Source: Tricholomella constricta
Lineage: Eukaryota; Basidiomycota; Agaricomycetes; Agaricales; Lyophyllaceae
DNA length: 64,000 nt
Reading direction: 5' to 3'
Assembly (NCBI GenBank): GCA_013368375.1
Contig: JAACJP010000043.1
Coordinates: 1-64,000, forward strand
Below, piece by piece: positions 24,050 through 50,341 of this stretch. The notes beneath the pieces are model-generated. The model saw only the letters and a program-made list of their open reading frames with translations. It ran no database searches and had not been told where the DNA came from. The position numbers were made by a program, and so were the translations under genes. Positions within the stretch are counted from its first letter, which is position 1; each line of letters opens with the position of its first letter.

Positions 24050-24928
24050 CGAGGAAAATGCGTGTCTCGTGAGCGTGGTCAGTTGTGTTTTCGTAAGCAC
24101 ATGGGCCTAAGTACATCCTTGGTAGGCGCTATCTTTTCATTGGTACATACATCTCATGGGTTACCAAATCCCGGTTTAATCGCGTCGTGACTTTCATTTG
24201 CCGCAGCGCCCACCTGTCTATGGGTTTCGATCACATTCCAGAGCAGGATGGAGTATGGCGATCGAACTGAGTGCTTTTGTTGTCTCCCGTATCGTAATGC
24301 GCAGCGTCGCTGCAGAGGTCTTGGTGTCGCGGAGCTCGAGCGAATTCAGGCTTCACATCTGCGGACCCACTCTTCATTGATTTTTCCGCTCACTGCAGTA
24401 TGCACCAAGATTCATCATCCATCTGGATTTCGTCTACCACTGGCAACGGGTCTGTTTGCCGACGAGCTAAAGCAGATATCCAAGCGATGATCTAAATCGG
24501 TCGAGTTACGCAGCAGGGCCATCGCGCCAGACCTTTCAGCCGAGAGATATCACTATGTTAAAGACCAGGCTACCGATGAAGCAGACTCGAGAGGTGTTAG
24601 GATGTCATAGGATCGGAGGCGTGTTGCAGGCTTCGGAGAGTGGGATGACGTCTACAATGTCTCCCAGACATAGGATATGTCTACAGCTGGGAGCCGTGCG
24701 ACGCAAGACCGTGTTCGTCGGAACGCAGCACGGCGTTTTCACGGATGAATTGATATCTAGGCGAAAAGCGAATACGGGCATCATGGAGTCACCGGAACTG
24801 TTAGGGATTGAGGACCATTTGTCCTTGATTGGCAGTCACTCCGGTCCTCAAACGCAATGTCAACCACATCGACGGATTGCGCATGACACTAACGATTGTA
24901 TCACTCAGCCGTCATCTTCAGTATCGAG
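24050..24928. other. Intergenic region with a piece of a dispersed sequence block
   Basis: At about 24,640-24,740 lies GTGGGATGACGTCTACAATG followed by CTCCCAGACATAGGATATGT, related to blocks at about 46,855, 49,310 (reverse) and 53,460 (reverse). At 24,760-24,928 the sequence is the upstream region shared by the F-box paralogues, including GGCGAAAAGCG at about 24,760, which matches the place where the KDZ element entered next to the second paralogue. Confidence 0.55.
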
Positions 24929-26181
24929 ATGTCCTCTTCGACGCTACCACTTGAGCTAATCTATGCCATCATCGACGAGCTTTCTGGTGACAAGCCTGCT
25001 CTATCCGCGTGTTCTTTGACTTCTTCCAGTCTTCGAGGACAAGCACAGAAACACCTTTTTTCCAAGGTTGTGCTCTACCTCGATGCTATAGATCCATGGA
25101 GAGCAGATAACCTGCACGGGATTCTTTACTCTAACCCACAACTGGCATCTCTTGTAGTGTCCCTCGAAGTCCACATCAGTGAACGACCGGGACTGGAGAT
25201 CGTCATCATTCGCCATTTCTCCCTGCTGAATAGATTTCCTCGGGTACGCTCAGTCGCGTTGACATCGTCATACATAGACTTCACCCAATGGCGGGATATG
25301 CAGGATGACCTTAGGATACCATTGCTCATGCTGATCCAACAACCATCAGTGGAGACTCTCACTCTCGTATACCAAGGCTGTTTACCACCTCAAATCCTTA
25401 GCCATTGCTTGCAGCTCAAGCACCTCATCATGGAACGTTGTCGGTTGCAAGACTCGAGATATCAGCCAAGGATGTCCACCGAGATCGGACGACGTTCCCA
25501 TGGTGGCCAGCAGGGGCATCTCGAATCGTTGAGGCTGGATGCCGGTTACAGTCCTCTTTTAGCAACACTGATCCACCCATCATCTCCACTCTCCTTCTCT
25601 CGCCTCCACACGCTGTTCATATCCTCACTCCAAACTACACCCGCCAACATGCTGCAGAACATTCTGGACGCGGCATCCCTTTCGCTGGTACAGTTGTCGC
25701 TGGCATTCGACGGTGTCTTCCTCGATCCCGGTGCGTAGCATGTCATCACTTCCAAACATTCTCAACACGATCTTTATGCGCATACCTTTCTGCAGCCAAC
25801 CTCGCCAGTCGGGTAACATCTCTCCGCGCCCTCACGCACCTCAAGTATCTCCACCTGAGCTTTTCACAAGGTCAGGTGGGGCCCTTCTTAAGAATCATTA
25901 CGAGCCTCCCGCCAGCAGTTTATGGAATCAAAACACGCATCACCATCATGTATCATTTTGAAAGGGAGTGTCTCTCAGCCGCCTATCTTGAGGAGTGGAG
26001 GCTTCTGGACACCACGTTAACGGCATTGCACACTGCGGAGGTTCTGGCCCCGCTACGGTTCGTTGTGTTTTGCGATAGAAGGAACCATGGGCTGGCGGCG
26101 ATGCAGAGATTGCTGCCGGATCTCGATGCACAAGGCTGTTTGTTTGCAGAGGGGCATCCACGCCGCTCTCCCCTGCACTAG
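24929..26181 (+). CDS. F-box protein, paralogue 1 of 3, 2 exons
   Basis: Exon 1 is 24929-25730 and exon 2 is 25796-26181; the frame joins to 395 residues. The N-terminus LPLELIYAIIDELSGDKPAL is the F-box core seen in many Agaricomycete F-box proteins. Leu-rich segments with a loose repeat follow, such as PRVRSVALTSS, SVETLTLVYQG and SRLHTLFISSL, and the end reads AYLEEWRLLDTTLTALHTAE. The likely role is substrate recognition in an SCF ubiquitin ligase. The paralogue at 31,611-32,852 is in opposite orientation with the same exon layout, and a broken copy lies at 47,240-48,457. Homology extends past the stop codon to about 26,318. Confidence 0.75.
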
Positions 26182-26306
26182 ATATTTTCCCTTCCAGGCA
26201 TTACGGGTGATGCTGCTACTCATGGCCATTTGATGGTCCCATCATTTATATCGCATGTCCCGGATTCGCATCGTCATGCTGCTTCTTTCTGGTCGTGCGG
26301 CCGACC

Positions 26307-26540
26307 GGCATCATAGGTAGCAGGATGGGCATGGGGCCGGGGGAGGTGTATAACCCGTATGGTGCGGCGGGAGCGGCGGAGGTTGGGGTGGCGCGTGCAC
26401 GGAGCACGCGGGACCCGGGGGCGTTTGCGCATCGGAGTGGGTCACAGGAAGTGGCGACGCCGTTGCGTTTTCCCGGCCCGGGCACAAGTACCAGCCGTAC
26501 GACAACAACAATAATAATAATAATACCTTCACTGCAGTTG
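26307..26540 (+). pseudogene. Copied fragment of the tail of the membrane protein gene at 27.4-29.2 kb
   Basis: Reads GPGEVYNPYGAAGAAEVGVA, ARARSTRDPGAFA and a following FPGPGT and Thr-rich stretch, matching GPGEVYNPYGAAGAAGVGVA and ARARSTRDPGAFA at about 28,350-28,450. It has no start and soon loses the frame. The match begins right where homology between the two F-box 3' flanks ends, near ATAGGTAGCAGGATGGG, so this junction is a breakpoint. Confidence 0.8.
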
Positions 26541-31450: not shown

Positions 31451-31454
31451 GATG

Positions 31455-31610
31455 CTGCTGCCTATGATGCCGGTCGGCCGCACGGTCAGAAAGAAGCAGA
31501 ATGACGATGCGATTTCGGAACATGCGACATAAAAGATGGGGATCATCAAATGGCCATGAGTAGCAGCACCACCATTAACGCCTGGAAGGGGGAAACATCC
31601 AGGGCGGGGG
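31455..31610 (-). repeat. 3' flank shared with F-box paralogue 1 (inverted)
   Basis: Read on the minus strand this matches 26,182-26,318, including GCGGCCGACCGGCATCATAG and GGCCATTTGATG. With the genes themselves it forms inverted arms of about 1.4 kb (24.9-26.3 and 31.5-32.9 kb) around a 5-kb middle part. Confidence 0.75.
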
Positions 31611-32852
31611 TTAGGGGCGTGTACGCCTCTCTATATTTAAACAGCCTCGTGCATCGAGATCCGGCAGCATCCTCTGCAACGCCGCCGACACCTGCTTCCT
31701 TCCATCAAGGCTGAGTAAAAAGACCCGTAGCGGGGCTAAAACCTCCGCAGTGTGCATTGCTGTTAACGTGGTGTCCAGAAGCCTCCACTCCTCAGGATAC
31801 GCGGTTGGGAAAGCAACCGCGGGATAAACTGTGAAGGTGATGCGTGTTTTGACCCCGCAAAGTGTTGTCGGGAGGCTCGTGATGATGCTCAAGAAGCGTC
31901 CCGTCAGGCCTGGGTGGTACGACGCTTCAGAGGTCAGGGCGAGGGAGTTCAGGCGCGTGAGGGCACGGAGAGATATTATTGGATTGGCGGGGTCTGCAGA
32001 AAGGTATGCGCAAAGAACGGGTTGGCAATATTCACAAGTAATGGCATATCAATACGCACCGGGACTGGAGGGAATATAGTTGATTCCCAGCGACAACTCT
32101 ACCAGCGTAAGACACGCCGCATTCAGAATGTCCTGCACTGCACGAATGCGTTGCGTTTTGACATCGGATATGTCCAGGGTGTGGAGGCGGGAGAAGGATA
32201 GTGAAGATGACGTCTGGATCAGTACCTCTCGAAGGAAGTCGGAAGCGACATATATCCTTGATGATTCTGAGAGATGCCCCCGCTGCCTGCTTTGGTTTGT
32301 TTGAGCGATCGCGGAAGACGTCCTTGGCTGCTTTTTCGAGCCTTGCAACAAGCAACGTCGCACGGTAAGGTCCTTGAGCTGCCAGCAATAACTGAGGATC
32401 TGAGGTGGGAAGGACCCTTGTCGATCGAGAGTGAGAGTCTCCACGGTTGATTGTTGGATCAGCGTGGACAATGCTATCCTGACGTTAAGCTGCATAGTCC
32501 GCCATTGGGCCTCCTTTGGCCTTGCCGATGTCAACACGACTGACCGTACTCGAGGGAACCGATTCAGTAGAGTAACTTGGCGAGCGATGATGGACTCCCG
32601 TTCGAAAGGTTGACTTATAGGGACTTTGAGGGACACCACGAAAGATGCCAGTTGAAGGTGAGAGTAAAGAATCTCGTGCAGATCATCTGCTCTCGATGAG
32701 TCTCTACCATCGAGGCAGAGCGTAACCTCAGTGTAAAGGTGCTTCTGTGCTTGTTCCCGGAGACTGGAAGAAGCCAAAGAACATGCAGATAGAGCAGGCT
32801 TGTCACCAGCAAGCTCGTCGATGATGGTGTAAATGAGCTCAAGTGGTAGCAT
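31611..32852 (-). CDS. F-box protein, paralogue 2 of 3, 2 exons
   Basis: Exon 1 runs from 32,852 down to 32,060 and exon 2 from 31,993 to 31,611, the same layout as paralogue 1. The F-box core reads LPLELIYTIIDELAGDKPAL, and the end has EEWRLLDTTLTAMHTAEVLA. At the position of paralogue 1's start codon this copy has TTG, and the first ATG is four codons downstream, still before the F-box, so the protein should remain functional. No stop or frameshift was found. Its upstream region is cut at about 32,995 by the KDZ element, only about 130-140 bp from the start, so the element may now lie in its promoter. Confidence 0.72.
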
Positions 32853-32985
32853 CGAGGAGGGCAACGTAGTTGAGTGTTACAATCGTGAGTGCATGCGCAG
32901 TCGATGTGGTTGTCATCTTGTCGGTTCCTGCCAATCAAGAACAGATGGTCACCAATCTGACTCCTTCATTTGCGCATGAGCCTGC

Positions 32986-32994
32986 GCTTCTCGC
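32986..32994. repeat. Target-site duplication, left copy
   Basis: GCTTCTCGC, repeated exactly at 46,555-46,563 on the other side of the KDZ element. The inverted terminal sequences begin at the next base on each side. The paralogous unoccupied site upstream of F-box paralogue 1 reads GGCGAAAAGCG on the opposite strand, differing by one base. Confidence 0.75.
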
Positions 32995-33057
32995 ACCAGA
33001 CCCTGGGGTAATTATGCATCATCTACTGTCATAACAGTCTAAATATGATGCATCGCA
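32995..33057 (+). repeat. Left terminal inverted repeat of the KDZ element
   Basis: Begins ACCAGACCCTGGGGTAATTA and reaches AAATATGATGCATCGCA at 33,041-33,057. That last block of 17 bases recurs exactly, inverted, at 46,491-46,507. The outer 29 bases align without a gap to the other end at about two thirds identity, including TTATGCAT. Confidence 0.7.
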
Positions 33058-34480
33058 CGTTCTAGTGACCGTACACCGGTCATGCAACATGCCACCGTTG
33101 GGGTCATGCAATATGCCACCGTTGCATTACAGTGCACGACGGTACTGTAGGGCCCACAGTATCACTCATGCTCTTTCCTGTGCTGTAATTGATGCATCAC
33201 ATTACCGTAAGCTCTTCCTCCATGAATCGATCATTGCATGCTTCGACTCGATACTGATACTTCTGGCATAAGTCGGTGATGCATCACTCATGCCCTCTCA
33301 CGTTGACGGATAACACTGTCCATGCTGCATCACTGTGAGCCACCTCTTTGATAGCTGCATTGGTGATGCATTACTCACAATTCTCAGCGTTGACGGAGGA
33401 CACCATTGGCGGGTTTTGATAGGTTTACCCTTGACTGCCGTTCGCACGTCCACAATGCATCACTCACGCTCTTGCCTGTGCAATTACAGGCCAGCTCTCC
33501 TTCTAGCAAGGGTCGGTAATGCATCACCCACGCCCTCTCACGTCGACGGACAATAGTGTCCATGCTGCATCGTAGCGGGTTTAGTATTACCTTAGACTAC
33601 AGTTCGCGCGTCCACGATGCATCATTCACGCTCTTTCCTGTGCAATGAATGATGCACCACATTGCCGTAAGTTCTCCCTCCATGGATCGACCACTGAATA
33701 CTGATACAGACCATCTAGCATGGGTTGGTCATGCATCACTCACGCCCTCTCACGTCGACGGACAATAGTGTTCATGCTGCATCGCAGCGGGTTTAGTATT
33801 ACCTTAGACTACAGTTCGCGCGTCCACGATGCATCATTCACGCTCTTTCCTGTGCAATGAATGATGCACCACATTGCCGTAAGTTCTCCCTCCATGGATT
33901 GACCACTAAATACTGATACATACCATCTAGCATGGGTCGGTCATGCATCACTCACGCCCTCTCACGTCGACGGATAACAGTGTCCATGCTGCATCACTGT
34001 GAGCTACCTCTTTGACCGCTGTGCATTGTTGATGCATCACTCACAATTCTCAGCGTTGACGGGGGACACCATTGGCGGGTTATAGGATTACCTGACTGCC
34101 GTTCGCACATCCATCACTCCGATGGATTTTACCGTACGTATGCACGAGCATGCTCAGTGATGCATTACTCCTGCCCCCTCGCGTCGACAGGTATTATACT
34201 ACTACACGAGCATAGTGATGCATTACTCCTGGCTGGCTCCTCGTGTCGATGGATATCACTGTTCGTACACATGAGCATGCATCAGTGATGCATCACTCCT
34301 GGCGCCCTCGCGTCGATGTATATTTACGCACTATATCACTATTTTTGTGATAGCTCCCTCTTGTCGGTGCTGATGTATGATATAACTGTAGGCTACTCCC
34401 CGTTGGTAATGTACTAATCACAGGCCGCACTTTTGTCACTCGATGTACCGATGTTCGTCAGCGATGCATCAATCACTGTA
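33058..34480. repeat. Left subterminal repeat array of the KDZ element
   Basis: About 20 occurrences of the core ATGCATCA or close variants, spaced through 1.4 kb. Part of the array is a larger tandem unit of 211-212 bp; adjacent copies start at about 33,561, 33,773 and 33,984 with CATGCTGCATC and contain ACGCCCTCTCACGTCGACGG. The palindrome TGATGCATCA is the recurring element. Arrays like this are likely transposase binding sites. Confidence 0.8.
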
Positions 34481-34690
34481 TGACTCGAGCAGTTTCTTAC
34501 ATATTAAACGGATTCTATTGTAGAGATACCAAGAAAGCAAATAGTGTTACACAAGATAGGTTAAGATATAATAGATACGGGTATCAAAAATCAACGACGA
34601 TTGAGAATACAAGACGACAAGAAACAGAGACATCAGTACACCACAGATGCACATACAAGATAACGCTACAGATATAAGATACCAGACTCA

Positions 34691-37687
34691 AGATTGCTTA
34701 GCCCTAGAGGCAAGGACGAGTGAGCATAGGTAATTGCGAAAAGGACATCAAAACATACCGCTTGGCTGGCGCAGGGGCATTGTTCTCTGTGCCTGGACGC
34801 TTTCGCTTGTGGACAACAGTCATTACCTCAAGGCACTGGCGCATATCATCGATACAAGCATTCCAGTGCGGCATGGAACTTTCCTGCCAGCGAGAGCCTG
34901 CTGGCAAGTGCTGACCCCACCAGAATATGAGTGTCATGACGCAAATGAAGCCATTCGGACCACCCTTTTGCAAAGGTGCCCAAGCCGACGACTCCGACGA
35001 AGTATAGGTCGCATGCGGCATTAGACCATCAGCCCGACGGAACGGCGGCTGCATATTCTTCCACCAAGCCATCACTGCATACCCGAACTCGAGGGGGTCC
35101 TCAATGGCAGGCGTGACGTCGTATGCGCGAACTCCATTGCGTCCTTTTGAGACCCACTTGCTCCATTCTTCCGGTCGCAATTTTGTTGACGGCAGCGTAC
35201 CCTTGGCTTTCGAAGAGAGGTTCATAGCGTCTTCGAACTGTAACCAGGCCTCGACGCAACGACTCCATTCAGTACCAAGATCGTGGCTCGTGAAATAAAG
35301 TTGCGCAGCGGTCAGCCATCCTGGACGAGATGTAGCGGAACTGGGAGGGACATTTTCCTTGTTTGCTGTAGAGCAGTCGAGCACGACCTTGGCCGTGGTC
35401 CCGATCTTGTTCATGGCATCCGCTCGGGTTGATGGAATGATGTGACGACCAGATCGTGAGCGTGGCTGGAGAGACAAAGCGGTTGGCTCACTGGTTGCCT
35501 CTTTGTCGACGGAAGTTGATGACGATGAATTTTCGATGTTTGGATCCGCAGCTACCTGCATGGCGAGTGCGCCTGATATGGGACATCCCGGAGATCCCGA
35601 AGTGTTACTGGTATCGGGCACATCCAATGGAGCCGAGGCGGCAGCTTGAGTGACGATATTTTCTTCGATAGGGGCTTGCGGAATAGCCAAGCCCTGCAGC
35701 GGGGGAGACACGGGTGGATGAACCACAGCAGGCTGGGACTCGGACAGCGGCGCATAAGCATCCTGTGACGCGGTCATAAGGCCGAAGAAGTCGAATGGTA
35801 CGTCAGCACCAGGGAGTGACGGCATCTGGAAGTCGGACGTCGCAGATACCGAAGGCTCTGGGGGTATAGGGACACCCAATGATGAACACAAATTATCATT
35901 ACGCATCCAATCGAAGTCCGACAGGCCCTGCATCCAATCGTAATTATCCGGCCCCACCATGCCACCTCCACTCGAAGCGTTGCTAGCAGCTGAAAACAGG
36001 TGTGAAAAACTCCCTGCAGCTCCGAAGACATTCAGACTGTCGAAATCCTGCACGGCTGAGTTGAAGTGTTCGATGCCGACGTCAGAGGTTGGGAGAGCTG
36101 GCGATGTCTGGGTTGGAGCCAACGCCGGGACCGCAGATGCTGCAAGAGGACCCAGTGCCGGTATAGGGAGGGTGGTGGCTGGAGTAGAGAGAGCGATAGC
36201 CGGCATGTCCGGTGTGGGGAGAGCAATAGCCGGTTCAGGGGAAGCAGTGGCTGGTGTAGGAATAGTTGCCGATGTAAGGCAAGAAGTGTCCGGGGTAGGG
36301 CGGGTAGTTTCCGTTGTAGGGAGAGTAGTGGCCGGTGTAGGGGGAGTATTTTGCGGTGTAGGGAGAGTAGTGGCAGGCGTAGCCAGGCTCGGCGACGAAT
36401 GTGATGCATCAGAGTCGGTGACCAATGCAGCTGTGCAGCTATCCATTGACAAAGCTGACAGTGATGCATCACTGACGACATGACCTATGGACTGGTGTCA
36501 GCGCGACGGTCAAAACAGTCAAAAGGATTAGAGACGAACTGTTTCCAACTACCTGCATGTCCTCCATGCTCTCGATGAGCTTCATGTCAGTATCATCCTC
36601 CTGGATGTCCGGAGAGGCACCAAGAGCCCGCGAACGACGTATAGCAGGCGCTATAGACAATATTTCAGGTCAAAGCTCTCTGCCGTCAATGACAAAAAAA
36701 ATAACTCACGGTATATGTGGCAGAGAAACTCTGCGTAGGGTTGCATGACCGTCTTCTCGAACGACTGGTTTGCCTGACCAAAGTGCTTGTTGTTCGGAGT
36801 CTCGCCCACATGAAAACTACCAAGAGAGTTAGATTTTTCGTTAGAACGAAGGTAGGTTGAGTACTCACCTCGCAACATTGATCTCGCCTTTTGCAGCGGG
36901 GTCGGGGCCACCCATTATCACTGAAAATGACCATCCAGTCTTCTCTGCCAGAGTGTTGAGGAAACGGCCAAGGACTTTAGGACATTCTTCAATGGCCCTG
37001 GGGAATGAATCGGATGAGTAGGTAGGAATTGCGTTCAGGGCCAGACTCACTGCAGAAACTGTTCGGGTGTGGACGGCGTCGGCTCCGACCTCTTGGCGAT
37101 CAATTCCTTCAACACAGTCTCGACCTCAGCCCTTATCATATCATCCGTCTCCGCCTCCCAGCGTTGCCTTGTTACCTCTGTCGTGATGGTGAGCTTTTCA
37201 CCACGCTTGACTGCACCTCGCCTTCTGACTTCAGCCGTAACATAGGGCTTGATCTTGTCCTCGTAATAAAGCTTAGAATAGATCTCTGGGCGGGTACTCA
37301 AACGGGAGCGTTCGAATAGCGCTCCGGCTGCCTTGCGGATTTTTTCGGTAGAACGGCCCTTGGCCCCACACCGCCACCGATACCAAGTCTGGAGCTGCTG
37401 AATACAATCATTGTGTCAGCGTGGCCCCATTGATACAAATAAGCAAAATGAACCGCTTGACGTGCAGGCCTGGGAAGGTTAGGACTCTTGAATTTTGCGC
37501 CCTCCGAGTCATGTTCTGGTAACTCCGGTAGCGAAAAATTGTCCTCGGGAAAGGCTTTCCCCCACTCAATGTACAGCTGCTCCCAGAAAGGCCCGTAGTC
37601 CCCAGCTTTCTGGGCTTCCATGTACTCAGGAATGCGAATTTTCAAAAAGGCCTGTTGAGCCACCGACGCCCACATAGGTTGCGGCAT
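34691..37687 (-). CDS. KDZ-associated protein with divergent HMG-like N-terminus, about 7 exons
   Basis: Reading from the ATG at 37,687, the first exon gives MWASVAQQAFLKIRIPEYME, then GPFWEQLYIEWGKAFPEDN. This is the Trp-rich helical pattern of the divergent HMG domain reported in basidiomycete KDZ elements. Exons: 37687-37454, 37394-37051, 36997-36869, 36816-36710, 36650-36553, then a long exon from about 36,479 to 34,759, and a short last exon ending at about 34,691. The long exon has Thr/Pro-rich repeats (36,130-36,370) and a conserved C-terminal part with EWSRCVEAWLQFE, EEWSKWVSKGRNGVRAYDVT and ALQKGGPNG-like WAPLQKGGPNGFI. The splice near 36,553/36,479 is not in frame with the obvious canonical sites. 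Either I misjudge it or the gene is broken there. A DNA-binding role in transposition is inferred. Confidence 0.65.
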
Positions 37688-37978
37688 CTAAATGATCGGT
37701 TAAGGCACCCAACGGAGTTAATAAAATTCAATGACACACTTTTCTGTTGGCTTCAAGATTCCAGGAACAAATCTTTGTGACCCCAGACAACTCGACAAGC
37801 CGACATCCGGGATCACCGGATCCAAACCTTAATTTATGAACTAGCTAGTTTGATCAACTTTCCAGCCAATCAACGCTTTCAAAAAAGTGGGGCATATATA
37901 ATCACCAATCAGACCCTGAACGCCACCACCCCGCTTAAACTTTTTACCTCCGCCTCTACCCCCTCTCGGCTCTTTACT
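37688..37978. promoter_or_regulatory. Divergent promoter region inside the KDZ element
   Basis: About 290 bp separate the starts of the minus-strand HMG-like gene and the plus-strand RNase H1-domain gene. A TATATAA at about 37,895-37,901 lies about 80 bp before the plus-strand start. The two genes are likely expressed together. Confidence 0.5.
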
Positions 37979-39011
37979 ATGACTCAGAACCAAAATGTGA
38001 CAGACGACGGAGCTGCACGCGCAGCACCCTCTTCTGCGACACTCGCTGAACTCCTGGCCGCCTTGGCCATTGGAGGCCGTGCGTTTTTTTTTCATTTGTT
38101 ATCCACGCGCATTACTGACAACATCCACTTAGGGATCATCCTGACTGTGGGCGACCCGGTGTCGACCACGACTCTCACCGCCTCCCTGCCTGACCAGGTC
38201 ATTCTCCCCAACGACGTCTCTGGCTCTTTGTCCGTTTCCTTCAGTGCCGGTGGCTCTGGCAGCACCGCCCCTACTGGTAGGTATTCACTTGTAGGTATCG
38301 CAAACTGAACTCAAGTATCTGCAGGCCCCTTGACATCGTCGGCCCAAGCTGCATGTGAGTACATCCCTAATCAGTAACGTCTTGAGCCCTCACGCATTGT
38401 AGCCCCTGGCCCCACCTCAGCATTCCTCAGCAAGGCAGACACCTCTGCCGCTGCTCTTCCTACCATCACCCCTTCTTCTATCATTGCCCCTCCTTCTACT
38501 GCCGCCCTTCCTTCTATCGCTGCCCCTCCTTCTAATGCCGCACCTCCTTCCACCGCCACCCCTACCACTGCCGCGCCTTCTACCGCTGCCGCTCCTTCTA
38601 CCGCTGCCGCTCCTTCTGCCGCTGCTTCTCCTTCTGCCATCCCTGCTGCTGTCCCTGCCCCTGCGAGCAGCGGGAGCATGGTGTATGGTCCGATCGAAGT
38701 CAGCGACGGTGAAGAAGGTATGTTGCTTATGATACAGTCTCGGATGGAGCTAATTACATATGTAGATGATTTCGACCCCACTCTTCGTTGGTACACGATC
38801 ACACGGGGCAGGCGTGTCGGAGTTTTCGCTCACTGGTCAGTCCAGGTCACTAATATTTACGGCCTTAAAATGACTGTTATCTAGGCAAAATGTGGCTCCC
38901 TATGTTGTGTCGGTGTCGGGTGCAGTCTATGCGCGGTTTCGAAGCCGAGCCTTGGCAGAATTGGCGTTTGCTGATGCTGTGCGCACTGGTGTCGTGGCGA
39001 TTGTTCCTTGA
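37979..39011 (+). CDS. Protein with an RNase H1 N-terminal-type (viroplasmin-like) domain, 6 exons, carried by the KDZ element
   Basis: Exons 37979-38078, 38133-38276, 38325-38354, 38403-38717, 38766-38835 and 38885-39011 join to 261 residues. The first half is acidic and Thr/Ser-rich, then comes a stretch of Ala/Pro/Ser repeats (APSTAAAPSTAAAPSAAASP). The C-terminal 60 residues read RWYTITRGRRVGVFAHW, then SVSGAVYARFRSRALAELAF. This is the pattern of the small domain that binds RNA/DNA hybrids or dsRNA at the N-terminus of eukaryotic RNase H1 (xWYxxxxGRxxGVF..W, SGAxYxxFxSxxxAxxAF). There is no RNase H catalytic domain. Nucleic-acid binding is inferred. Its position inside the element boundaries makes it cargo or an accessory of the transposon. 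I know similar stand-alone proteins from Agaricomycetes but not their role. Confidence 0.72.
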
Positions 39012-39964
39012 GGAGTGGTAGTAATTTTTTGGACTTATTCGCAGCCTCGTGTACTGTATACTCCACCTTCTTCTGCTGCCGTCTTTGATTTCTGCTCACC
39101 GTCGTGCTCTTACGCTGTCATTGATATATCTACTGCCACCTGCTAATGTACCTTATCTTGATCATACCCCGTATCTATCATCTTGCTATATTTTGGACTT
39201 TATTTTTTTTACCCCGCAGACCTATCCCGTTCACCACACCCTCTCTTTACCGATATCTTCCCCCTTCCTGAACCCGAAAAAAAAAATAAAAAAAAATTAC
39301 TCCTAAATTCCAATGAGAGAAAGAAACCGTCCAATGAGAAACATGTTGCCGTCAAGTGCTCAGCTACAGTGAGAGGCCTTTCCGCTGGAGTGGGAGCGCG
39401 AAGTGGATAGATCTCATTTCAGATCTGATCAGGCCCAATCCTGTCGATCGAGCTGATCGTTAGGAATATCGGACCGTTCGATCAGCCAATCAGGGGACGT
39501 ATAAATCCCTACTGAGATTGACCTCGACATGTATTCAGCGTCTAGCATAAGGAATATAAGTCAAATGACTTCCAGTAAACCGCCAAATTACAAAAGAAGC
39601 GCGATACTTTCTGTCTGAGCAAGTAGATCAAATATCTAAGGAGGTCATCGAATGAAATAAATGTTGCATCGTAACCAGGTATTCAGTCAAGATTCAACCC
39701 GACCGTTGACCTGCGAATGACTATTGAACTTATGGTTCAACTGTTCTCCTCCTCTCACAGTAATCGGAATTCAAAGTGCATTGAAAGTACACAGGCCACT
39801 AAGAAACATCCGAATTGCCCCGCTTGTCGATACATATACACTGGAAAGAAACACGTAAGGGACGAACCTTTATTTCCTCGATGCGCATTAGTTGAAGTTG
39901 TACCGCATACAATTTGTAGTACATTACAATAAGCATACAATTTGTAGTATATTATAATAACTAA
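39012..39964. other. Intergenic region inside the KDZ element
   Basis: Lies between the 3' ends of two convergent genes. It has an A/T run at about 39,280-39,300 and an AT-rich part near 39,900-39,960. No reading frame is convincing. It shows none of the TGATGCATCA motifs found at the element ends. Confidence 0.4.
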
Positions 39965-40677
39965 CTACGACCAGCGATTTACATAGACTCCGAGAAAGGC
40001 GTCTGATCCCTTAGAAAGTGCTATCAAATCGTCCTTCAAATGACAGACCCTTCGCGCCTCCCAATGCAACATTCCTTGACCCATATCTGCACCGAACCCC
40101 AGAGGTAGATGCTCCATCATGTCGCGTATCTCGGTCCATTGCCTGTAATGAGCCATCATTTCCGCGTGAACCTCTGCTAAAAATTCTTCCAATGCCAATG
40201 ACTCGTAGCGCTGCAGCCGCCGATCTTCACTCTCTCGCAGAAGTCGCATACGATATCCTTGCAGTGCATCGAGCAGTAGATGGGGATGCTCTGGGGAGGG
40301 AGACGCCAGTCGAGACAGATTGTTCCATTCGGCAAGTTGTGAGTCTGCATAGTCGGTGTCCTCGAGTGCGTCACTGCTTCGTAGCGCTTGTTGGAAAATA
40401 CGCGAGTTTGAGAGAGGGTCATCGGCAAGGGCAAAGAGTTCGTCAGAGAGGGTAGGGATACGAAAGCCAGTGAGAATTGCCGATGGTACGCGTGCCTTGT
40501 ATGCTCGATGGTTTTGAGCGGCACGCAATTTCTGACAACTTATGTCACATGTAATTGAAATGTGTGTTCTTTCAAGACTACAGACACTCACTGTGCAGTC
40601 GCAGCGTATTCTCTGTGGCGTGCTCGTGCCCCTGCTTTACGCTCATCGAGGGTCAGATACTTCGCCCGTCGGCCCAT
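39965..40677 (-). CDS. Small basic KDZ-associated protein, 2 exons
   Basis: Exon 1 starts at the ATG at 40,677 and ends at 40,592; exon 2 starts at about 40,538 and ends at 39,965. The acceptor ATAAG gives a continuous frame of about 220 residues. The start MGRRAKYLTLDERKAGARAR then REYAATAHCQKLRAAQNHRA is strongly basic and helical, reminiscent of a basic region plus coiled coil as in bZIP-like proteins, though no leucine heptad is clear. The rest is acidic and helical (LALEEFLAEVHAEMMAHYRQ, HLKDDLIALSKGSDAFLG). It is divergent from the transposase gene with about 190 bp between the starts. It may be a regulator or DNA-binding partner of the transposase; this is inference. Confidence 0.6.
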
Positions 40678-40870
40678 ATTGAAACAGAGAGAAATGCGCT
40701 TGATAATTGACAAGCGTTACTGGTCATCGATGAGTATTTCTTTGAATGGGTTGAAGGGAATGAACTTACATGGCCCAAGATGATCACAATGTGCAGTGTG
40801 TCGGGCAATGCAGGATACAAGCGCAACTGGCAGGTTGTTTACTCATATTTGTAAAGCTTTTCTCTTGAAC

Positions 40871-43800
40871 ATGGGTCGTGGTCGCAGTAAGAAATACGGA
40901 CTAATTTTTCACGATCCACACCCTCGGCGGACCACTGCTCCAACTGAAACTAAGCATCGAAGCACTTGCTATACTGGCACTGGGGGCCATATCCATGTCT
41001 CCACTTCGTTCATCTCAACAGAAACTTCCGCTGCTGATACAACTCATGGTACTGACTCGGAGCTCCCATCTGTACTCGGCGAAGAGGAGGAAATGTTCGA
41101 TGTGGCATATATGGATCACCTTCAAGATATATCTATTGAAACAGGAGGACGGAGGCGTACAGCTGGGGTATGTAAACCTCGTTTTGCTTTCTTTGTTGAC
41201 GCTCAAGATTTATTTAGGATGAGCCAATGAGGGTATGGCTCGCGCACCGTGAAAAGTACTTGGAGGAGATGATTACTCTTGAGGGCCGGGGGGAGGCACC
41301 GACGAACGTCTGCCTTAAGTGTTCAGAAAGTGAGAGGAACCCTGCCGAGTTTGAGTGCCTTGATTGCTCCAACCGCCAACTGCACTGCCAAGGGTGCATC
41401 GTTAGCCAACACGCTATCAGCCCTTTCCATAGGATTCGTGTAAGTCCAATCTGCAGCGTAGCAGCACCATTTGGCTGATTTTTCTGTCATGCAGCGATGG
41501 AATGGTACCTTCTTTGAGAAGACGAGTCTCAAGGCACTTGGCTTGCGTATGCAACTTGGACATGCGCGAGGTATACAGTGCCCCAATCCACAACCTAGCC
41601 CGGGCGACGATTTTACCGTCATCGATATTCGAGCAATTCACAGCGTGGGCCTCGACTTCTGCGGCTGCGGTCATACTAGTCATCTACACACCGTACAACT
41701 GCTTCGCCACCGATTATATCCTGCAACTTGCATCAATCCGAAGACTGCCACCACGTTCCGAGCACTTGAGGCATATGAAATCCTTTCCTATGCTTCAAAA
41801 GTTTCCGCGTTCGAGTATTATCAATCGTTAGCGCGTATGACAGACAATACGGGCACTAGCCCTCCAAAGGTGAAGTCCGTCGCTTTCTGTAGATGCAAAG
41901 AGTGTTCACTTCGCATCAGGATCGCTACCCGAGCTTCCTGCGTGTCATTCGACAATGGCGGTATCTGAAGATGATGAAGCGAGCCGCACGAGGGCATGAC
42001 CCAGATGGCCCTGTATCGAAAACACAAGAGGGTGAATGTGCAGTTCTCTGCCCCGCCTGCCCCCAACCGGGAAAGAATTTACCAGAGGGCTGGGAGGACG
42101 CACCTCTCGACAGACGGTAAGTCTGCGACCCTCCTGCCATTTTTTTGCGAAGGTACTGATCATGTCAAAGATGGTTATATGGATTGTTCCTAGGTATCGA
42201 CGCCAATTTCCGTCTCAAACGGAAGGATGTCTCGAGCGACAAGGCCGACCCCGATTTGGGTCAGGGTTTCGCATATTTCGTCAAGGAGAACGAATACAAA
42301 GCTCACCTCGAGGCTTATAAGGATGAGAAGGAGCCGGTACGTTACTGGCTGCATTGTACATGTATTTCGAACGAATCTGACGCTTCAGGAATAGAAATCA
42401 ACGTGCTCACGTCACGACGCTGTCAATCTCTCAAATTCAAAACCTGGACAAGGCCACGCGGCCACAGGCGTAGGGACAATTGAGTGTGCTCGTCACAATA
42501 TGAAGCGTCCACGGGCTGTTGGAGACTTGCAAATGGGCGAGAGGTAAGTTGTCTCATAGCCCAAGTATCAGGAGCTTACTAAATCTACGGCGACAGGTAC
42601 GTGAACATGGATTACCTCTTTTGGAAAAGCATCGTAGGTTCGCAAATTCTGGCCTTCTTCGTCGCATACGACATCGCCTGCCAATGGTCAGTCAATCTTC
42701 AAGAACGGATGTATCGCCTCGACCATAAGTTTTTCCTGTTCAACGGAAAGGTATATGTAAAGTTCTTGGTACCAAAATTCCACCTTCCTGCGCATGTAGC
42801 CCTTTGTCGCACCAGGTTCTCGCTGAACCTCACGCCGGGTGTTGGGCGTACTGATGGGGAGGCCGCAGAGAGAGGATGGGCAGAGGTGAACCCACTGGCT
42901 ACCAGTACTAAGGAGATGGGGCCGGGATCTCGAAGGGATACACTAGACGCCCACTTTGGTGATTATAACTGGCGAAAGGTAGTAGGAATGGGTATGTTAT
43001 TACACATTCGAGTCTATTATACCATCGGTAATCCACCTTATGACAGGCCCAACATTACTGCGCAAGCTGAAAGCCGCGGCGAGCGATATGGCCGACCATG
43101 TAGTCGCACACGCAGAGCTGACAAGCTCTCTCCCACCAGCGAGCACCGCGGAATGGGCTGCAGAGGTTGAAGCATGGGAGAGAGACCCGCTCCAGCCAAA
43201 TCCATATGAGAGTAGAATTGACTGTATGTCCCTTCCTTTTACTTGCGCTTCATAGTGCTTACACCATTTCAGTGCCCACTCAAGCCGCTGTCCGCCGGCG
43301 TATGGCAGAGGAGGAGGCTCAGGCTATCGCTACTGGCCGCGATATAGCCCTTGACATCAATGTCACCCCCAGTGTCCTGATATCAGCAGGACTTGACATC
43401 GAAGCCGAGCAGTGAGTCGCTGAACGGCAACGCGGGCATCGCTAATGGACATCAACAGACGTTCTATTAAAGTCGAGTCATCCAAGGTATGGGCACATGC
43501 ACAGGACCGGCAGAAAACAAGACTACAACTGCGAACCAATGCCCTGACCCGCAAGATCGCTATATGGACGCAGCGACAACAACTCTACATGCCGTCAGTC
43601 GTCGTATTACGTCGAGCAGATGCCCAAACTAAATCTCTCTCCCCTGCAATACACGAGTACCCCCTGTGGCTGCCTTCCCAGGTGGGACACAGAGTCTCCT
43701 TCGACATCCGGCTTGCAAGAATTGAATGGGAGCTGCGCACCGCTCAGGCTGAAGAAGCGCTCGACAGCATGCGGCGAAATTTACAGATTCGATCCTATCT

Positions 43801-44489
43801 CTACAAATTCAAGGACCGATTTGTGCGTGGACAACATGCAAATACTCGGGCCCGGAATGCCATTGCAACGGTCCAGGCGAGAATCGATATGAGTGCTGAG
43901 GAGTACCGTGCCGCGTATGTGGCTCTGATGCAGCTTGCAAATCTCCTCAAAGTGGTCTGTCCACCGTCTCTGCAGCCACTGGCAGCTGGCGATATACGGG
44001 AGATGTCCGAGGATGATGGTGTTTCTGAAGGGCGACGCACGATATCGTGGATATGGCGAACCGTTGGAGTAGCAGGAACAGATGAGAACGACCCCGCCTT
44101 CCGTGACGGTAAGTAATTATTCATCATAGACCTCTTCGTTGTTGACATTCATATCAGGCCTTCGTATCGAATGGTGCAAGTCACGGGCTAGAGCAATGCG
44201 TTTCAAAGAGGAAGTAGACCTTCTGCAAGAGGAGATGGAGCGTGTTTTGCGGTTCCTAAATTGGCAGGAGCGTTGGTGGCGAACAAAAGCTGAGTCTGGT
44301 CCAGAGAAGGAGGGTACACCGCGCGGAGAGGGTCTACGGGCGTATGCAGAATGCCAGGCTGCTCTACGCCGAACGATGGCCAGTCACTTTGACAACTTGT
44401 GGAAGTCAGTTTCTAGCTACGTTAATGATGCTCGTAGTCGAATCGCTGCCGTCACTGCAACTATCGGTGGCAGCGATGTCATAGAATAG
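40871..44489 (+). CDS. KDZ transposase with CxC2-type cysteine cluster, 11 exons, intact
   Basis: Exons 40871-41167, 41218-41439, 41495-41869, 41920-42116, 42171-42336, 42395-42543, 42597-42991, 43047-43223, 43273-43411, 43459-44108 and 44158-44489 join in frame without a stop to 1,032 residues. The N-terminus is basic (MGRGRSKKYG). A zinc-binding cluster follows at about residues 130-175 (VCLKCSES, CLDCSNRQLHCQGCIVSQH), then DFCGCGHTSH, CRCKE being removed by splicing. The RNase H-fold core shows three acidic sites: LFLGIDANFRLKRK (Asp about 374), FFVAYDIACQW (Asp about 494) and GEAAERGWAEVNP (Glu 557/560). After it comes the family's DAHFGDYNWRK. The C-terminal part is long and helical (QQLYMPSVVVLRR, RGQHANTRARNAI). 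These match the described KDZ family closely. It should cut and paste the element in the nucleus. The reading frame is fully open, so activity is possible. Confidence 0.9.
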
Positions 44490-46490
44490 TCTTATCAACT
44501 TAGTCCGTGTACAGATTGAATTGCCATTAGTATTTGCAGCGACGTGCTCCTGGTGAACTTAGAAACAATTGATTGCTCTATACACGCGTGCGCAGGCTAC
44601 ATACACAAACAGCATGCTGAGGCGCTCCGTCAATAATGCTTTGTCGCGGTAATGTGCTCGACAGTGGCATCATGCATTGCTAGTAAATTGTAATCTCCGT
44701 CAGTGATGCAATAATACATGGAGGGTGAGACCATCATACATGTGAAAGGTGCCCCGTCAGTAACACTTCAGTACGGACATTGCCAATGGTGGCTCGATGC
44801 ATTTCTGGTCAAAGGCAATCTCCATCAGCGATGCATAACATATGTTGAGCCAATACGGTGACCTGTAATATACATGAGAGATGCCCCGTTGGTAATGCTT
44901 CGGTAGGGCTGATGCATCACTATTCAATGGCACTTTCTGTCAGTCATGCATAACCATGAGGGTAAGCAGTCGCACGCACGAGAGATGCCCATCGGTGATA
45001 CTTCGGTAGGGATGTTGCTGACGGTAGCTCGATGCATCTTCGGTCGACGGGGCTCCCGTCAGTGATGCATAACATATAGAGGGTGAAGGGATGTACAGAC
45101 GAGCGGCGCCCCATCAGTATTGCTTCGGTAGTCCCGGACTGTGGCTTGATGCATCATCGGTCGAAGGAGCTCCCCATCAGTAATGTATAATATAGAGCCT
45201 GAGAGCGGAAGCTGATATACGGACGAGCGGCGCCCCGTCAGTATTGCTTCGGTAGTCCCGGGATGTTGCTAACTGTGGCTTGATGCATCATTGGTCGAAG
45301 GAGCTCCCCGTCAGTAATGTATAATATATAGAGCGTGGGCTGATGTACGGACGAGGGGCGCCCCGTCAGTATTGCTTCGGTAGTCCCGGACTGTGGCTTG
45401 ATGCATCATCGGTCGAAGGAACTCCCCGTCAGTAATGTATAATGTATAGAGCATAAGCTGATGTACGGACGAGAGGCCCCGTCAATATTGCTTCGGTAGG
45501 GACGTCGTCAACTGTGGCCTGATGCATCACTGTCGATCGAAGGAGCTCCCCGTCAGAATGCATAACAAGCTGATGTACGGACGAGGGGCGCCCTGCTTCG
45601 GTGGGGATGTTGCTGACGGTAGCTCGATGCATCTTCGGTCGACGGGGCTCCCCGTCAGTGATGCATAACATATAGAGGGTAAAGGGATGTACAGACGAGC
45701 GGCGCCCCATCAGTATTGCTTCGGTAGTCCCGGGATGTTGCTAACTGTGGCTTGATGCGTCATCAGTCGAAGGAGCTCCCCGTCAGTAATGTATAATGTA
45801 TAGAGCATAAACTGATGTACGAACGAGAGGCCCCGTCAATATTGCTTCGGTGACGTTGTCAACTGTGGCTTGATGCATCATCGGTCGAAGGAGCTCCTCG
45901 TCAGTAATGCATAACATATAAAGCGTAAGCTGTACAGATGAGGGCGCCTTGTCAGTATTGCTTCGGTAGGGATATTGCTAACTGTGGCTTCATGCATCAT
46001 CAGTCGAAGGAGCTCCCCGTCAGAATGCATAACAAGCTGATGTACGGTCGAGGGGTGGTCGGTAATGTTTTCGTAGGGACACTGCTGATGGTGGCTTGAT
46101 GCATAACTAGTCAAAGGCAATCTCCATCAGTGATGCATAATAGATGGATATTGAATACGGAAAGCACCCCTTTAGGAATCTTTTGGTAGGGACGTTGCTA
46201 ACGGTGGCTCGATGCATCATCGGTCAAAGGAGCTCCTCGTCAGTGATGTATAACTCATACCAGAGGGTAAGCTGATGCACGTACAAGGGTGCCCCGTCAG
46301 TAATGCTTCAGTAGGGACATTGCTAATGGTGGCTCGATGCATCACTAGTCTATGGCACTTTCGGTCAGTGAAGGAATGCATTGATTGGCGGCCCCGTAAT
46401 TGATACATCAATCTTCACGAGGAAGGACGGCAGGGAATAAGTACTTGGACCCTGACCCACGGTGAGTATCCGTTGACGTCTGTGTCCGCC
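44490..46490. repeat. Right subterminal repeat array of the KDZ element
   Basis: About 14-15 tandem copies of a unit of roughly 107-129 bp. Each carries GCTTCGGTAG, then CTGTGGCTTGATGCATCATC, a GAAGGAGCTCCCCGTCAGTA block and GATGTACGGACGAG. The TTCGGTAG block recurs at about 45,001, 45,126, 45,247, 45,376, 45,490, 45,720 and so on. The unit sequence differs from the left array, but the core palindrome TGATGCATCA is the same. Minus-strand frames here only translate the repeat. Confidence 0.85.
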
Positions 46491-46554
46491 TGCGATGCAT
46501 CATATTTCGACGCTGACTAGCATCGGATAATGCATAAAATCCACAGTATAGGCT
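46491..46554 (-). repeat. Right terminal inverted repeat of the KDZ element
   Basis: Read on the minus strand it begins AGCCTATACTGTGGATTTTA and reaches AAATATGATGCATCGCA at 46,507-46,491, equivalent to the left end with the same spacing give or take one base. Confidence 0.7.
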
Positions 46555-46563
46555 GCTTCTCGC
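46555..46563. repeat. Target-site duplication, right copy
   Basis: GCTTCTCGC, identical to 32,986-32,994. Confidence 0.75.
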
Positions 46564-47239
46564 CGTATTAATATACGGTGAATTGATACCATCGAGCTCA
46601 TTTCCCGTGCTCCTCGCAGCAAATCACATCAAAGCTGTTCGGTGAAATCCATTCAATCATTTACAAGGTCAGAATTAATCTCGAAAGGTAAGCCAGCTTC
46701 TATTGCGAGAACTACCTCGACAATTATGATGGCTCACTGAGTCAAACGCGGCAGTTTGGCAGATGCAGGCTGAACTTTCGATAGTACGGCTTCGCGGGCG
46801 CGACAGTGATATGTCTTCCTGAGGTAATATGATGCGAGAGGATGGGAGTGGACTTGGTAGAGAGTGGGGTGACGTCTACATCTCCCAGACACAAAATACG
46901 TCTAGATCTAGGGGCCGTGGACGCAAGCAAGACATACTTTCGGGAAGCTGGCAGACATATGGAAGAGAAACCGCGTAAGAGCAACAGGGCGCCTAACGAA
47001 TATTGATGTCGCCAGGGAGGCAGCGCGTCGAACCGCTATCATGCAACTGGACTGATACACATTGAGCAGCTATGGGCCAACACCGGCGGCCTGCAATGAT
47101 ATGTTGTTAAACCTAATCCCAGGCAGGGTGGTGTCCGCGATATGAAAGAAGGGATGAAATGGCTATGAGTAGCAGCACCACCAGTAATGCCTGGAAGGGG
47201 AAAGATCTAGGGCAGGGTAGAACGGCTGTGTGGATGCGT
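46564..47239. repeat. Flank of the KDZ insertion with a dispersed sequence block
   Basis: At about 46,840-47,080 lies a block that also occurs at about 24,640-24,740 (same strand), 49,090-49,390 and 53,270-53,560 (opposite strand). In the best copy its translation reads LGAVDARHETFWKLADALKE then NVDVDREAARKNRQYATGLI; here the corresponding frame is broken (GAVDAS, NIDVAREAARR). It may be an exon of a once coding gene or part of a repeat. The end of the region shares the 3' flank of the F-box family. Confidence 0.5.
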
Positions 47240-48457
47240 CTAGTATGCACACAAACAACCTTGTGCATCGAGACCCACCAGCACCCTCTGCAGCGCCGCG
47301 AGCACGTTCGGCCTTCTGTCGTAACCAAGTACAAAGACAAGTAGCGGGGTCAAAACCTCCGCAGTGTATCGCTGTCAACGTGGTGTCCAGGAGCCTCCAC
47401 TCCTCAGGATACGCGGTCGCAATCCTGGGTGTAACTTGGAAGATGATGTGTGTTTCAAGCCCATACACTGCTGTCGGGAGGCTCGTGATGATGTCTAAGA
47501 AGTGCCCCGCCTGGCCTGGGTGGTACCGGGCTGCGGAGCTCAGGACGGGAGACTTCAGGCGCGTGAGGGCGCGAAGAGATATTATCGGATTGGCGGGGTC
47601 GGCTGCAGAAAGGTATGCGCATAAAGACCGGGCTGGCACAACATTCGTCAATAATAGTATGTTACGAACCAGGATTGGGGGGAGTATCTTCGAGTCTCAG
47701 CGATAACTGCATCAGCGAAGAAGATGCCAACATTCTGGATCTTCTGCAGGGCATGAGTATGCTCTGATTTGACGGCGGATATGCCCAAGGTGTGGAGGCG
47801 GGAGAAGGATAGTGAAGATGTTGGGTGTATTAGTGACGTTAGAAGCAAGTCGGAAGCGATATCCAGCTTTAGCGATGCAAGATGCCCCTGCTGCCTACTA
47901 TAGGATCGTCGACCGACCTTGGTGGACATCCTTGCTGATGTCTAGAGCCTTGCAATGAGCAATATTGCATGATGAGGTCCTTGAGCGGCCAGCAAAGGCT
48001 GAGGATCTGGTGTGGGAAAGACTCTTGGCGTTCGAGAGTGAGAGTCTCCACAGTTGGTTGTTGGATCAGCGTGAGCTATGCTTCCCTGAGGTTACGCTTC
48101 ATGTCCCGCCATTGACTGTATTGTTTTGACGTTGTCAACATGACTGAGCGTACCCGAGGAAATCTATTCAGCACGGGCCCGGATATGGCGTCCTAATTGT
48201 TGACTGATGTTGACTTCAAGGGACACTACGAAGGATGCCAGTTGTGGGTTAGATAAAAGAAGATCATGCAGTTTATCTGCTCTCGATGAACCTCTATCAT
48301 CGAGGCGGAGCGCACTGATCTTATGGAAAAGTTGCTTCTGTGCTTGTTTTCAAAGGCTGGAAGAAGTCAAAGAACACGCGGATAGAGTACGCTTGTCATG
48401 ACCAAGCTCGTCGATGATGGTGTAGATTAGCTCGAGTGGTAGCGTCGAAGATGACAT
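47240..48457 (-). pseudogene. F-box protein, paralogue 3 of 3, broken
   Basis: The minus strand begins MSSSTLPLELIYTIIDELGH as in paralogue 1 but reaches TGA at about 48,350-48,352, where the intact copy has CGA (Arg). Further stops and frame changes follow, although stretches such as SSLSFSRLHTLGISAVKSEH, QQGHLASLKLDIASDLLL and EEWRLLDTTLTAIH can still be aligned along the whole gene. The 3' flank shared by all three copies follows. It is a decayed member of the family. Confidence 0.8.
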
Positions 48458-50341
48458 CTCGATACTGAAGACGGTTGAGTGATACAATTAGTCCGTGCGC
48501 AATTGAATTGATGTGGTTGGCATCGCAGTGTCGTTTGAGGCCGGGGTTCCTGCCAATCAAGGACAAATGGTCCCCAATCCCGGCGATTCTATGTCTACGC
48601 TTTTCGCCTTGATTTTCATCTGTAAAAACATCGTCCCAGGTTCGTGAAAGAAACTCAGTCGGAAACAGTATTGAACATTCTCCCCAGCGCCGCCGTACAG
48701 GTCTTGCCTGAAAAAGGTTACCGGGGGATGCAATTTCACTCGGTTCTGAAGTCTCAGAACTTCGGCGGGAAGCCCAGGACTGCACTTGCCACAATATTTC
48801 TACGCTCCCACACCAGGGGCCAGACGACAGGCCACCTCTCATATCGGCTTGGTTGCAGAGCCAGCAGAGCGCCACGCGTGTCGCCCTATCCGCATATAAT
48901 CGGTGTCAGACTACACGAAATCCTCGGTTCGGCCTGGGTGCCGTTGCCACAGATTTTTCCCCTTGGACCTTGACGAGATCTTGGCGCGCCGAGAGCTCCT
49001 TCATGGTCTCTCTTTGTGCACCAGGTGGCTGGATATCGACTGCCCGCGCTCACTCAAATACATATCAGAAATGACGCCACCGTCTGCATGGTATAAGGCT
49101 TACATCTTAATGGAGAGGTTCCGTTGGCCCACCCACAGCTGCACGATGTGTATCAGTCCAGTTGCATATTGGCGATTCTTTCGCGCTGCCTCCCTATCGA
49201 CGTCAACGTTGTGTTTGGTCTTACGCTCTTCTGTTCTAACGCAGTTTTCCTTGAGCGCGTCTGCCAGCTTCCAGAATGTTTCATGCCTTGCGTCCACGGC
49301 TCCCAGTGCAGACGTGTCCTGTGTCTGGGAGAAGTAATCGACACCCCACTCTCCACGGCCTCCAATAGGCACCTCCCGATCACGTCATATCACCCCTGGA
49401 GAAGGCATATATCTGTCGGTGTGATGCTTCGCTTACTCCATGTCAGAATTCTCTGCTCCTGCGTTCCTTGCCAAACAGGTCCAATACCCGTGCCACTTCG
49501 CACTCGCCAGAACCAGCGCGCCAGCTTCTTTTCGCCAATCGCTGGGTCTCTACGACACTATCGTTTCATCTGTAGCCTGGTCTTTGACATGATAATCTTT
49601 CGCCGAAAACGTAAACCTGGCATCTGAGTCGTCAATGTAATTTTCACCCTGTCGCGGTAACTGATCCTGAACTCATTCATCCTGCTGTGCATCTGATTCA
49701 ATACCAGTGCTCTTCATGTGACCACCGTCTCGAGCAGCCGTGCATCACGCTTAATGACCCGCCTCTCCGAGCTCGAATAGGATCTTAACAAGTCGAAACC
49801 ATAATCGTTCCATGAAACACTCTATTGTGACGTTATATCTCAAGATGGAGGTGTTTCAGTCGTTGGTCCGACTCATGGAAAGGTAAGGTAAGCACTCAGA
49901 TAAGAGATTTGATTCCCTTTCACAAATTCGCCTCTACGTACCATGACATCGCACAATGACATTGATATTGAACTGGAGTTCAAGTATGTCACGTTCGATC
50001 CGAAGGCAGGCAAGTAAACGCCGACCTAGTCGGAAGTATTTACTCTTCTCGATTGTCGGTCTGATTGAAGGAGCAACATAGCTTAAATAACAGAGTTAGT
50101 GGAACTGTGGCAGTGATAGCTGATGAGCCCGATCCTGATGGTAAATGAAGGCTAATTTTCTGCTGCATATGCCCTGGCTCGCCTCTTGTACATTGACAGA
50201 AACTGAGTACCGCAAGACGAGGTGAAGTTGGAATCTTGTGCCTCCCCTTTCGCGCAGCTCACGTCCCCAGAACATGTTCCCTGTCATGTCTTCGCCTGGA
50301 TCAAGTTTAACTTAATCAAGCTCCATCACAACAAAGATCAA

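What the first reader, a model, noticed from the sequence alone, without database searches (positions are those of the whole stretch)
32986..46563. A complete KDZ transposon with target-site duplication, inverted ends and four genes
Seen: GCTTCTCGC on both sides; inverted ends starting at the next base and sharing AAATATGATGCATCGCA at nearly the same distance (46 and 47 bases); two subterminal arrays; an unbroken 1,032-residue transposase. Known: KDZ elements are widespread in basidiomycetes and often carry accessory genes. Inference: this is a full element of about 13.6 kb that may still be mobile.
Basis: partly seen in the sequence, partly recalled or inferred. Interest (0 to 1): 0.9.

Follow-up and report, generated by a model that had tools for sequence, protein, structure and literature searches.

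The report
Mushroom jumping gene with helper genes
This is a complete, recently moved 13.6-kb jumping gene of a mushroom-forming fungus that travels with three conserved companion genes of unknown job; the companions, not the jumping itself, are the new part.

Summary
A second copy on another contig of the same genome differs by 3 substitutions and a 3-base run-length change, ends at the same bases, and sits in a dispersed repeat whose unoccupied copies (14 of 14 read) show the intact target. This sets the borders at 32994-46555 (13,562 bp) and the target-site duplication at 7 bp (CTTCTCG), not 9. Five of five family members with both ends read show 7 bp and CA...TG ends, as published for Kyakuja. 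The transposase (1,032 aa, 11 exons) has CxC2 and KDZ domains. Genes A, B (RNase H1 N-terminal/viroplasmin domain) and C look to be under purifying selection. In this genome C lies by a KDZ transposase at 10 of 10 loci and A at 19 of 22, always upstream and divergent; A accompanies C at 10 loci and a weak TET/JBP match at 7, never both. I read A as a core Kyakuja partner and B/C as an alternative to TET; their functions are inferred. ATGCAT palindromes cluster inside both ends and are probably transposase-binding sites. A new variant of a known kind.

The parts
32994..46555 (+). complete Kyakuja-type KDZ transposon, CACCAG...GGCTG, 13,562 bp
   Evidence: second copy C38:302364-315928 with the same ends; empty sites
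32987..32993 (.). left target-site duplication CTTCTCG (7 bp)
   Evidence: length fixed by the C38 copy and its empty sites
46556..46562 (.). right target-site duplication CTTCTCG (7 bp)
33041..33057 (+). left copy of the shared inverted 17-mer AAATATGATGCATCGCA
46491..46507 (-). right copy of the shared inverted 17-mer
32994..34600 (.). left subterminal array, 17 ATGCAT palindromes
44700..46555 (.). right subterminal array, 118-bp units, 24 ATGCAT palindromes
34688..37687 (-). gene A, 7 exons, 887 aa, conserved TGWSFSV-MGGPDP core, no Pfam domain found in its pieces
37979..39011 (+). gene B, RNase H1 N-terminal / caulimovirus viroplasmin domain (PF01693, E 7.7e-9 on a partly settled gene model)
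39965..40677 (-). gene C, 2 exons (40677-40592, 40538-39965), 219 aa, basic N-terminus, predicted helical
40871..44489 (+). KDZ transposase, 11 exons, 1,032 aa, CxC2 (residues 185-293) and KDZ (368-593) domains

Best explanation
A complete, probably autonomous DNA transposon of the KDZ superfamily, Kyakuja type. Shown: exact ends, 7-bp target duplication, a nearly identical sister insertion with empty sites, a transposase frame without stops after splicing, and three linked genes with dN/dS well below 1. Inferred: the CxC2/KDZ transposase, through its DDE core, binds the repeated ATGCAT palindromes near both ends, cuts at the CA...TG termini and joins them to a target staggered by 7 bp. Also inferred: gene A is a DNA- or transposase-binding cofactor, gene C a small helical basic cofactor, and gene B, through its RNase H1-type domain, binds double-stranded RNA or RNA-DNA hybrids and helps the element escape silencing, the part that TET/JBP is thought to play in sister Kyakuja elements. 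The confidence given is for the element and its type; for the roles of A, B and C I put about 0.3.
For: Sister copy with 3 substitutions and one 3-base run-length change over 13.56 kb, sequences unrelated outside the borders. 14 of 14 empty sites read. 7-bp TSD and CA...TG ends in 5 of 5 elements with both ends read, as in Kyakuja. KDZ E 9e-62, CxC2 E 5e-40; 66% identity over the whole length to a Crassisporium protein. dN/dS against C21: transposase 0.11, A 0.28, C 0.17, conserved parts of B 0.09. Gene C beside KDZ at 10 of 10 loci, gene A at 19 of 22, all upstream and divergent. ATGCAT: 2-24 in the 1.5 kb inside 12 of 12 left ends, 0-1 in the 1.5 kb outside.
Against: No expression, excision or binding data. 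Kyakuja is described as having no TIRs; here the ends share weak inverted similarity. No tree with named Kyakuja references could be made. In 3 of the 5 elements (window, C16, C33) the base before the left duplication is G like the element's last base, so an 8-bp duplication could be written for them; C38 and C21 rule it out. Three gene A loci (C58, C8, C5:974972) have no listed KDZ hit within 15 kb. C21, the main partner for dN/dS, has stops in B (1) and in the transposase segments (2), so it may be decaying. The C38 transposase differs by one residue.
Confidence: 0.87

Rival explanations
1. The three extra genes are passengers caught by chance, as in Helitron or Pack-type capture, and do nothing for the element.
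For: Genes A and C match no Pfam family; C58 keeps A and B but gave no C match and has no listed KDZ hit; B gave no match at C33, C15 and both C22 elements.
Against: Same order and orientation at 10 of 10 gene C loci, with gene C identity down to 45%; dN/dS 0.09-0.28; neighbouring locus tags or equal contig lengths in Hypsizygus, Tricholoma and Lyophyllum.
Confidence: 0.15
2. The element is a KDZ transposon of the Zisupton or Dileera type, not Kyakuja.
For: Only the superfamily domain was matched; an 8-bp duplication could be written for 3 of 5 elements.
Against: C38 with its empty sites and C21 allow only 7 bp; published Zisupton and Dileera duplications are 8 bp, Kyakuja 7 bp with CA..TG ends.
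Confidence: 0.08
3. The two near-identical copies are a segmental duplication or assembly artefact and the borders are not transposon ends.
For: Only two near-identical copies were found.
Against: Similarity stops exactly at the TSDs, the 7-bp duplications differ, and empty sites exist; both copies lie 33 kb or more from contig ends.
Confidence: 0.01

Closest known systems
Kyakuja-1_LB, Kyakuja-2_LB and other TET+ Kyakuja families (Kojima 2025, PMC12730594)
   Same: KDZ transposase, 7-bp TSD, 5'-CA..TG-3' ends, Agaricomycetes.
   Different: Those carry an AG-type TET/JBP gene; this one has no TET match within its borders and carries genes A, B and C. Weak inverted similarity of the ends here, no TIRs there.
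KDZ1, KDZ2, KDZ3 of Cryptococcus neoformans (PMC12810828, passages)
   Same: KDZ transposase with a cysteine cluster, about 9-11 kb, shown to move.
   Different: 139-241 bp TIRs, CxC1 instead of CxC2, 8-bp (KDZ1) or 4-8 bp (KDZ2, KDZ3) TSDs.
Large helpo1.3 copy of Pleurotus ostreatus (PMC4289320, passages and one section)
   Same: About 10.7 kb of extra DNA in one allele, with a PF01693 gene (capE) between capD and an RNase H-fold gene later called a putative transposase (capF), flanking inverted repeats and a satellite.

Membership tests
KDZ superfamily | KDZ transposase domain (PF18758) | tested here: met
   E 9.1e-62, 209 bits against a cut-off of 26.6
KDZ superfamily | associated cysteine cluster | tested here: met
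   CxC2 E 4.7e-40, above its cut-off; CxC1 18 bits, below its cut-off
KDZ superfamily | catalytic DDE triad | tested here: inconclusive
   candidate residues seen by eye in GIDANFRLK, YDIACQW and DGEAAERGW; motif positions recalled, no structure or named reference compared
Kyakuja | 7-bp target-site duplication | tested here: met
   5 of 5 elements with both ends read; fixed exactly by empty sites at C38
Kyakuja | 5'-CA..TG-3' termini | tested here: met
   5 of 5; 12 left ends begin CACCA
Kyakuja | no terminal inverted repeats | tested here: inconclusive
   first 15 bases match at 9 positions by eye; a shared inverted 17-mer lies 47-48 bases in
Kyakuja | transposase grouping with named Kyakuja sequences | not tested
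   no named reference at hand; a rough tree within the genome puts the A-B-C elements apart from TET-linked ones
Zisupton / Dileera | 8-bp target-site duplication | tested here: not met
   excluded at C38 by flanks and empty sites and at C21 by flanks
RNase H1 N-terminal (hybrid-binding) domain, gene B | match to PF01693 | tested here: met
   E 7.7e-9, 36.1 bits against a cut-off of 21; nearest solved structure 1qhk, E 0.039

The most novel reading that the evidence does not exclude
Kyakuja elements are multi-gene systems built on a transposase plus a divergently transcribed core partner (gene A, not described in the papers found here), with an exchangeable anti-silencing cassette between them: TET/JBP in one branch, the RNase H1-domain protein B plus C in the other. 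B/C would protect the element at the RNA or R-loop level where TET acts on methylated DNA. On this reading the 'Helitron-captured viral genes' of Pleurotus helpo1.3 are a nested element of this kind.
Probability: 0.25. Interest if true: 0.65.

Novelty: new variant of a known kind. Interest (0 to 1): 0.5.

Why it matters
KDZ and Plavaka elements can be about half of a mushroom genome's DNA transposons (Marasmius oreades, PMC8290104, passage), yet in the papers found here TET/JBP is the only companion gene discussed. This is a fully bounded Kyakuja element with its ends, target duplication, candidate binding sites and a conserved four-gene layout. In one genome, TET-linked and TET-free lineages appear to share one partner gene and differ in the rest. 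That makes the question of how these elements avoid silencing testable by removing single genes.

Tried and rejected
Looked for an unoccupied copy of the window's own site: the left flank has three related stretches elsewhere (two in the window, one on C28), none reaching the break; the right flank was compared only within the window. The empty-site proof therefore comes from the sister copy.

9-bp TSD rejected: its outer bases are the element's own last G and first C, and the C38 copy shares only 7. 8 bp rejected although it could be written for window, C16 and C33, because C38 and C21 do not allow it.

Rows dropped. Left ends: 12 places were taken as the family because the bases after CACC...CCCTG resemble the window's left end, ATGCAT included; 8 further places with the short motif were set aside, 6 of them checked, with 0-1 ATGCAT in 3 kb. 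Since family members were picked partly for an ATGCAT near the end, one count per end is not independent. Tree: 13 of 23 loci kept, 10 with fewer than 120 aligned residues dropped; rows are tblastn segments, so it is rough, and it holds only 5 of the 10 A-B-C loci. Linkage: 113 KDZ rows typed from the list (157 matches there, not all listed; second pieces of loci already in the list left out); one row for each of 22 gene A loci from the 59 rows; 10 gene C loci from the 16 rows; all 23 TET rows.

Against the TET reading: of the 23 TET/JBP matches 6 pass Pfam's cut-off and none of those 6 is within 15 kb of a listed KDZ hit; the 15 that are near KDZ, including the 7 beside gene A, are below the cut-off (E 2e-6 to 6e-4), as single exons may be.

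Of 12 left ends, right ends were read for 5; 7 were not read. Seven further right-end-like places (C56, C91, C105, C59, C52, C15, C16:517068) were not followed.

Literature: searches (9 in all) showed no paper describing genes A-C with KDZ; most hits were seen as listings only. Iyer et al. 2014 (PMC3918813) is not held and could describe them. PMC12730594: abstract, passages, section 3.2.1 and figure legends seen. PMC12810828, PMC7641404, PMC8290104: passages only. PMC4289320: passages and one section.

A first dN/dS for gene C used an exon start wrong by one base and was replaced. Gene C homologue search: 1 protein; gene A: 6 proteins, with only the 7,996 candidates sharing most words scored.
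Full report
What is there. The window lies in a 44.1-Mb, 118-contig genome of a mushroom-forming fungus, judged from its protein relatives. The 17-base AAATATGATGCATCGCA occurs at six places genome-wide: both ends of this element, both ends of a copy on contig C38, and one end each of relatives on C21 and C58; the reversed control gives none.

Borders. The C38 copy (302364-315928, opposite strand) equals window 32994-46555 except for 3 substitutions and three extra A in a run; outside, the sequences are unrelated. It has CAAGCCG on both sides. Both flanks belong to one dispersed repeat; KDZ hits lie in it at C38:300149-300994. At 18 of 18 places where both flank queries reach the junction, their matches overlap by exactly the 3 bases that a 7-bp duplication predicts, given how the queries were cut. 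Of these 18 I read 14, and all 14 show an uninterrupted sequence with one CAAGCCG. This shows insertion and fixes a 7-bp duplication with the terminal C and G as element bases. Twelve left ends in the genome begin CACCA[GA][AG]CCCTG with differing bases before them. For three more elements the right end was located and read: C21 (150129-169632), C16 (179374-192461) and C33 (144150-159831), with duplications TTTTGAC, CTAAAAG and GACTTCC. So 5 of 5 elements with both ends read have 7 bp; for the other 7 left ends no right end was read. In window, C16 and C33 the preceding base is G, so that 8 bp could be written; C38 and C21 exclude it.

Genes. The transposase model has 11 exons, introns GT-AG and 47-58 bp, 1,032 aa. 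It matches a Crassisporium funariophilum protein at 66% over its full length and Pfam CxC2 and KDZ. Gene A: 887 aa, seven exons. Gene B: PF01693, E 7.7e-9; its middle exons are not settled. Gene C: 219 aa. Against C21 dN/dS is 0.11 for the transposase (999 codons; 2 stops in C21 skipped), 0.28 for A (712), 0.17 for C (218) and 0.09 for the conserved parts of B (90; 1 stop in C21 skipped). Against C58 it is 0.25 for A (728) and 0.10 for B (96). These are plain counting estimates without a significance test. C58 gave no gene C match and no KDZ hit is listed on that contig, so it is probably a partial copy.

The module. In this genome gene C was found at 10 loci, all 10 within 8 kb upstream of and divergent from a KDZ hit. 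Gene A was found at 22 loci, 19 of them upstream and divergent within 12 kb; 7.1% of the genome lies within 15 kb of a listed KDZ hit. All seven loci with a gene B match are gene A loci. Ten A loci carry C, seven have a TET/JBP match within 12 kb, none both, and five neither. The seven TET matches are below Pfam's cut-off (29.0-31.7 bits against 34.9), while the six above it lie far from listed KDZ hits; the TET-KDZ association itself is published. In public proteins, A homologues are in Lyophyllum, Hypsizygus, Tricholoma and, more distantly, Coprinopsis, Boletus and Suillus. That equal length means the same contig is my inference. In a rough transposase tree the A-B-C elements form one group (support 1.0) apart from TET-linked ones (13 of 23 loci kept).

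Subterminal arrays. ATGCAT occurs 17 times in 32994-34600, 24 times in 44700-46555 and 3 times in between. At the 12 left ends there are 2-24 ATGCAT in the first 1.5 kb inside and 0-1 in 1.5 kb outside. Repeated subterminal motifs are what transposases of hAT and CACTA elements bind (recalled); I infer the same here.

How it works. Shown: bounded element, recent spread to a new site, transposase frame without stops after splicing, low dN/dS in all four genes. Inferred: DDE-type transposition with a 7-bp stagger; ATGCAT arrays as binding sites; A and C as cofactors; B as an RNA- or hybrid-binding factor against silencing. The last rests on the domain's known binding in RNase H1 and on the viroplasmin family (recalled).

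What is known. Kojima 2025 (PMC12730594) gives Kyakuja 7-bp TSDs, CA..TG ends, no TIRs, and TET/JBP genes. KDZ1-3 of Cryptococcus are mobile, with 8-bp or 4-8-bp TSDs and 139-241-bp TIRs (PMC12810828, passages). Intact Pleurotus KDZ elements were all preceded by CxC2 (PMC7641404, passages). The Pleurotus helpo1.3 copy with a PF01693 gene, an RNase H-fold gene, inverted repeats and a satellite (PMC4289320) looks to me like a nested relative; that is a lead, not a test.

Verdict. The element is a TET-free Kyakuja-type variant with a conserved companion-gene set.

Noticed in passing
window 60537-61706 (+): Part of a Plavaka transposase (PF18759, E 7e-15): a second DNA-transposon type in the window.
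   Followed up: no
window 24804-26326, 31452-32957, 47137-48579: Three related stretches, 74-75% alike, lie around the element. The insertion sits just beyond one of them and before the next. Pfam found no domain in the ORFs tested there.
   Followed up: partly
G000:C38:300149-302363 and 315929-316452: The sister copy is nested in another KDZ-bearing dispersed repeat with about 20 relatives, so KDZ elements insert into each other here.
   Followed up: yes
own genome: Six TET/JBP matches above Pfam's cut-off lie away from listed KDZ hits, while 15 weaker ones lie within 15 kb of KDZ, so the genome seems to hold two sorts of TET gene.
   Followed up: no
Pleurotus ostreatus PC15 scaffold 1, 3742549-3754728 (PMC4289320): The published 'Helitron-captured' genes capD-capE-capF, with a viroplasmin domain, an RNase H-fold gene, inverted repeats and a satellite, read like a nested KDZ element.
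   Followed up: no
window 10669-11646 (+), 17438-19405 (-): An SKN1/KRE6 beta-glucan synthesis gene exon and an F-box-like protein.
   Followed up: no
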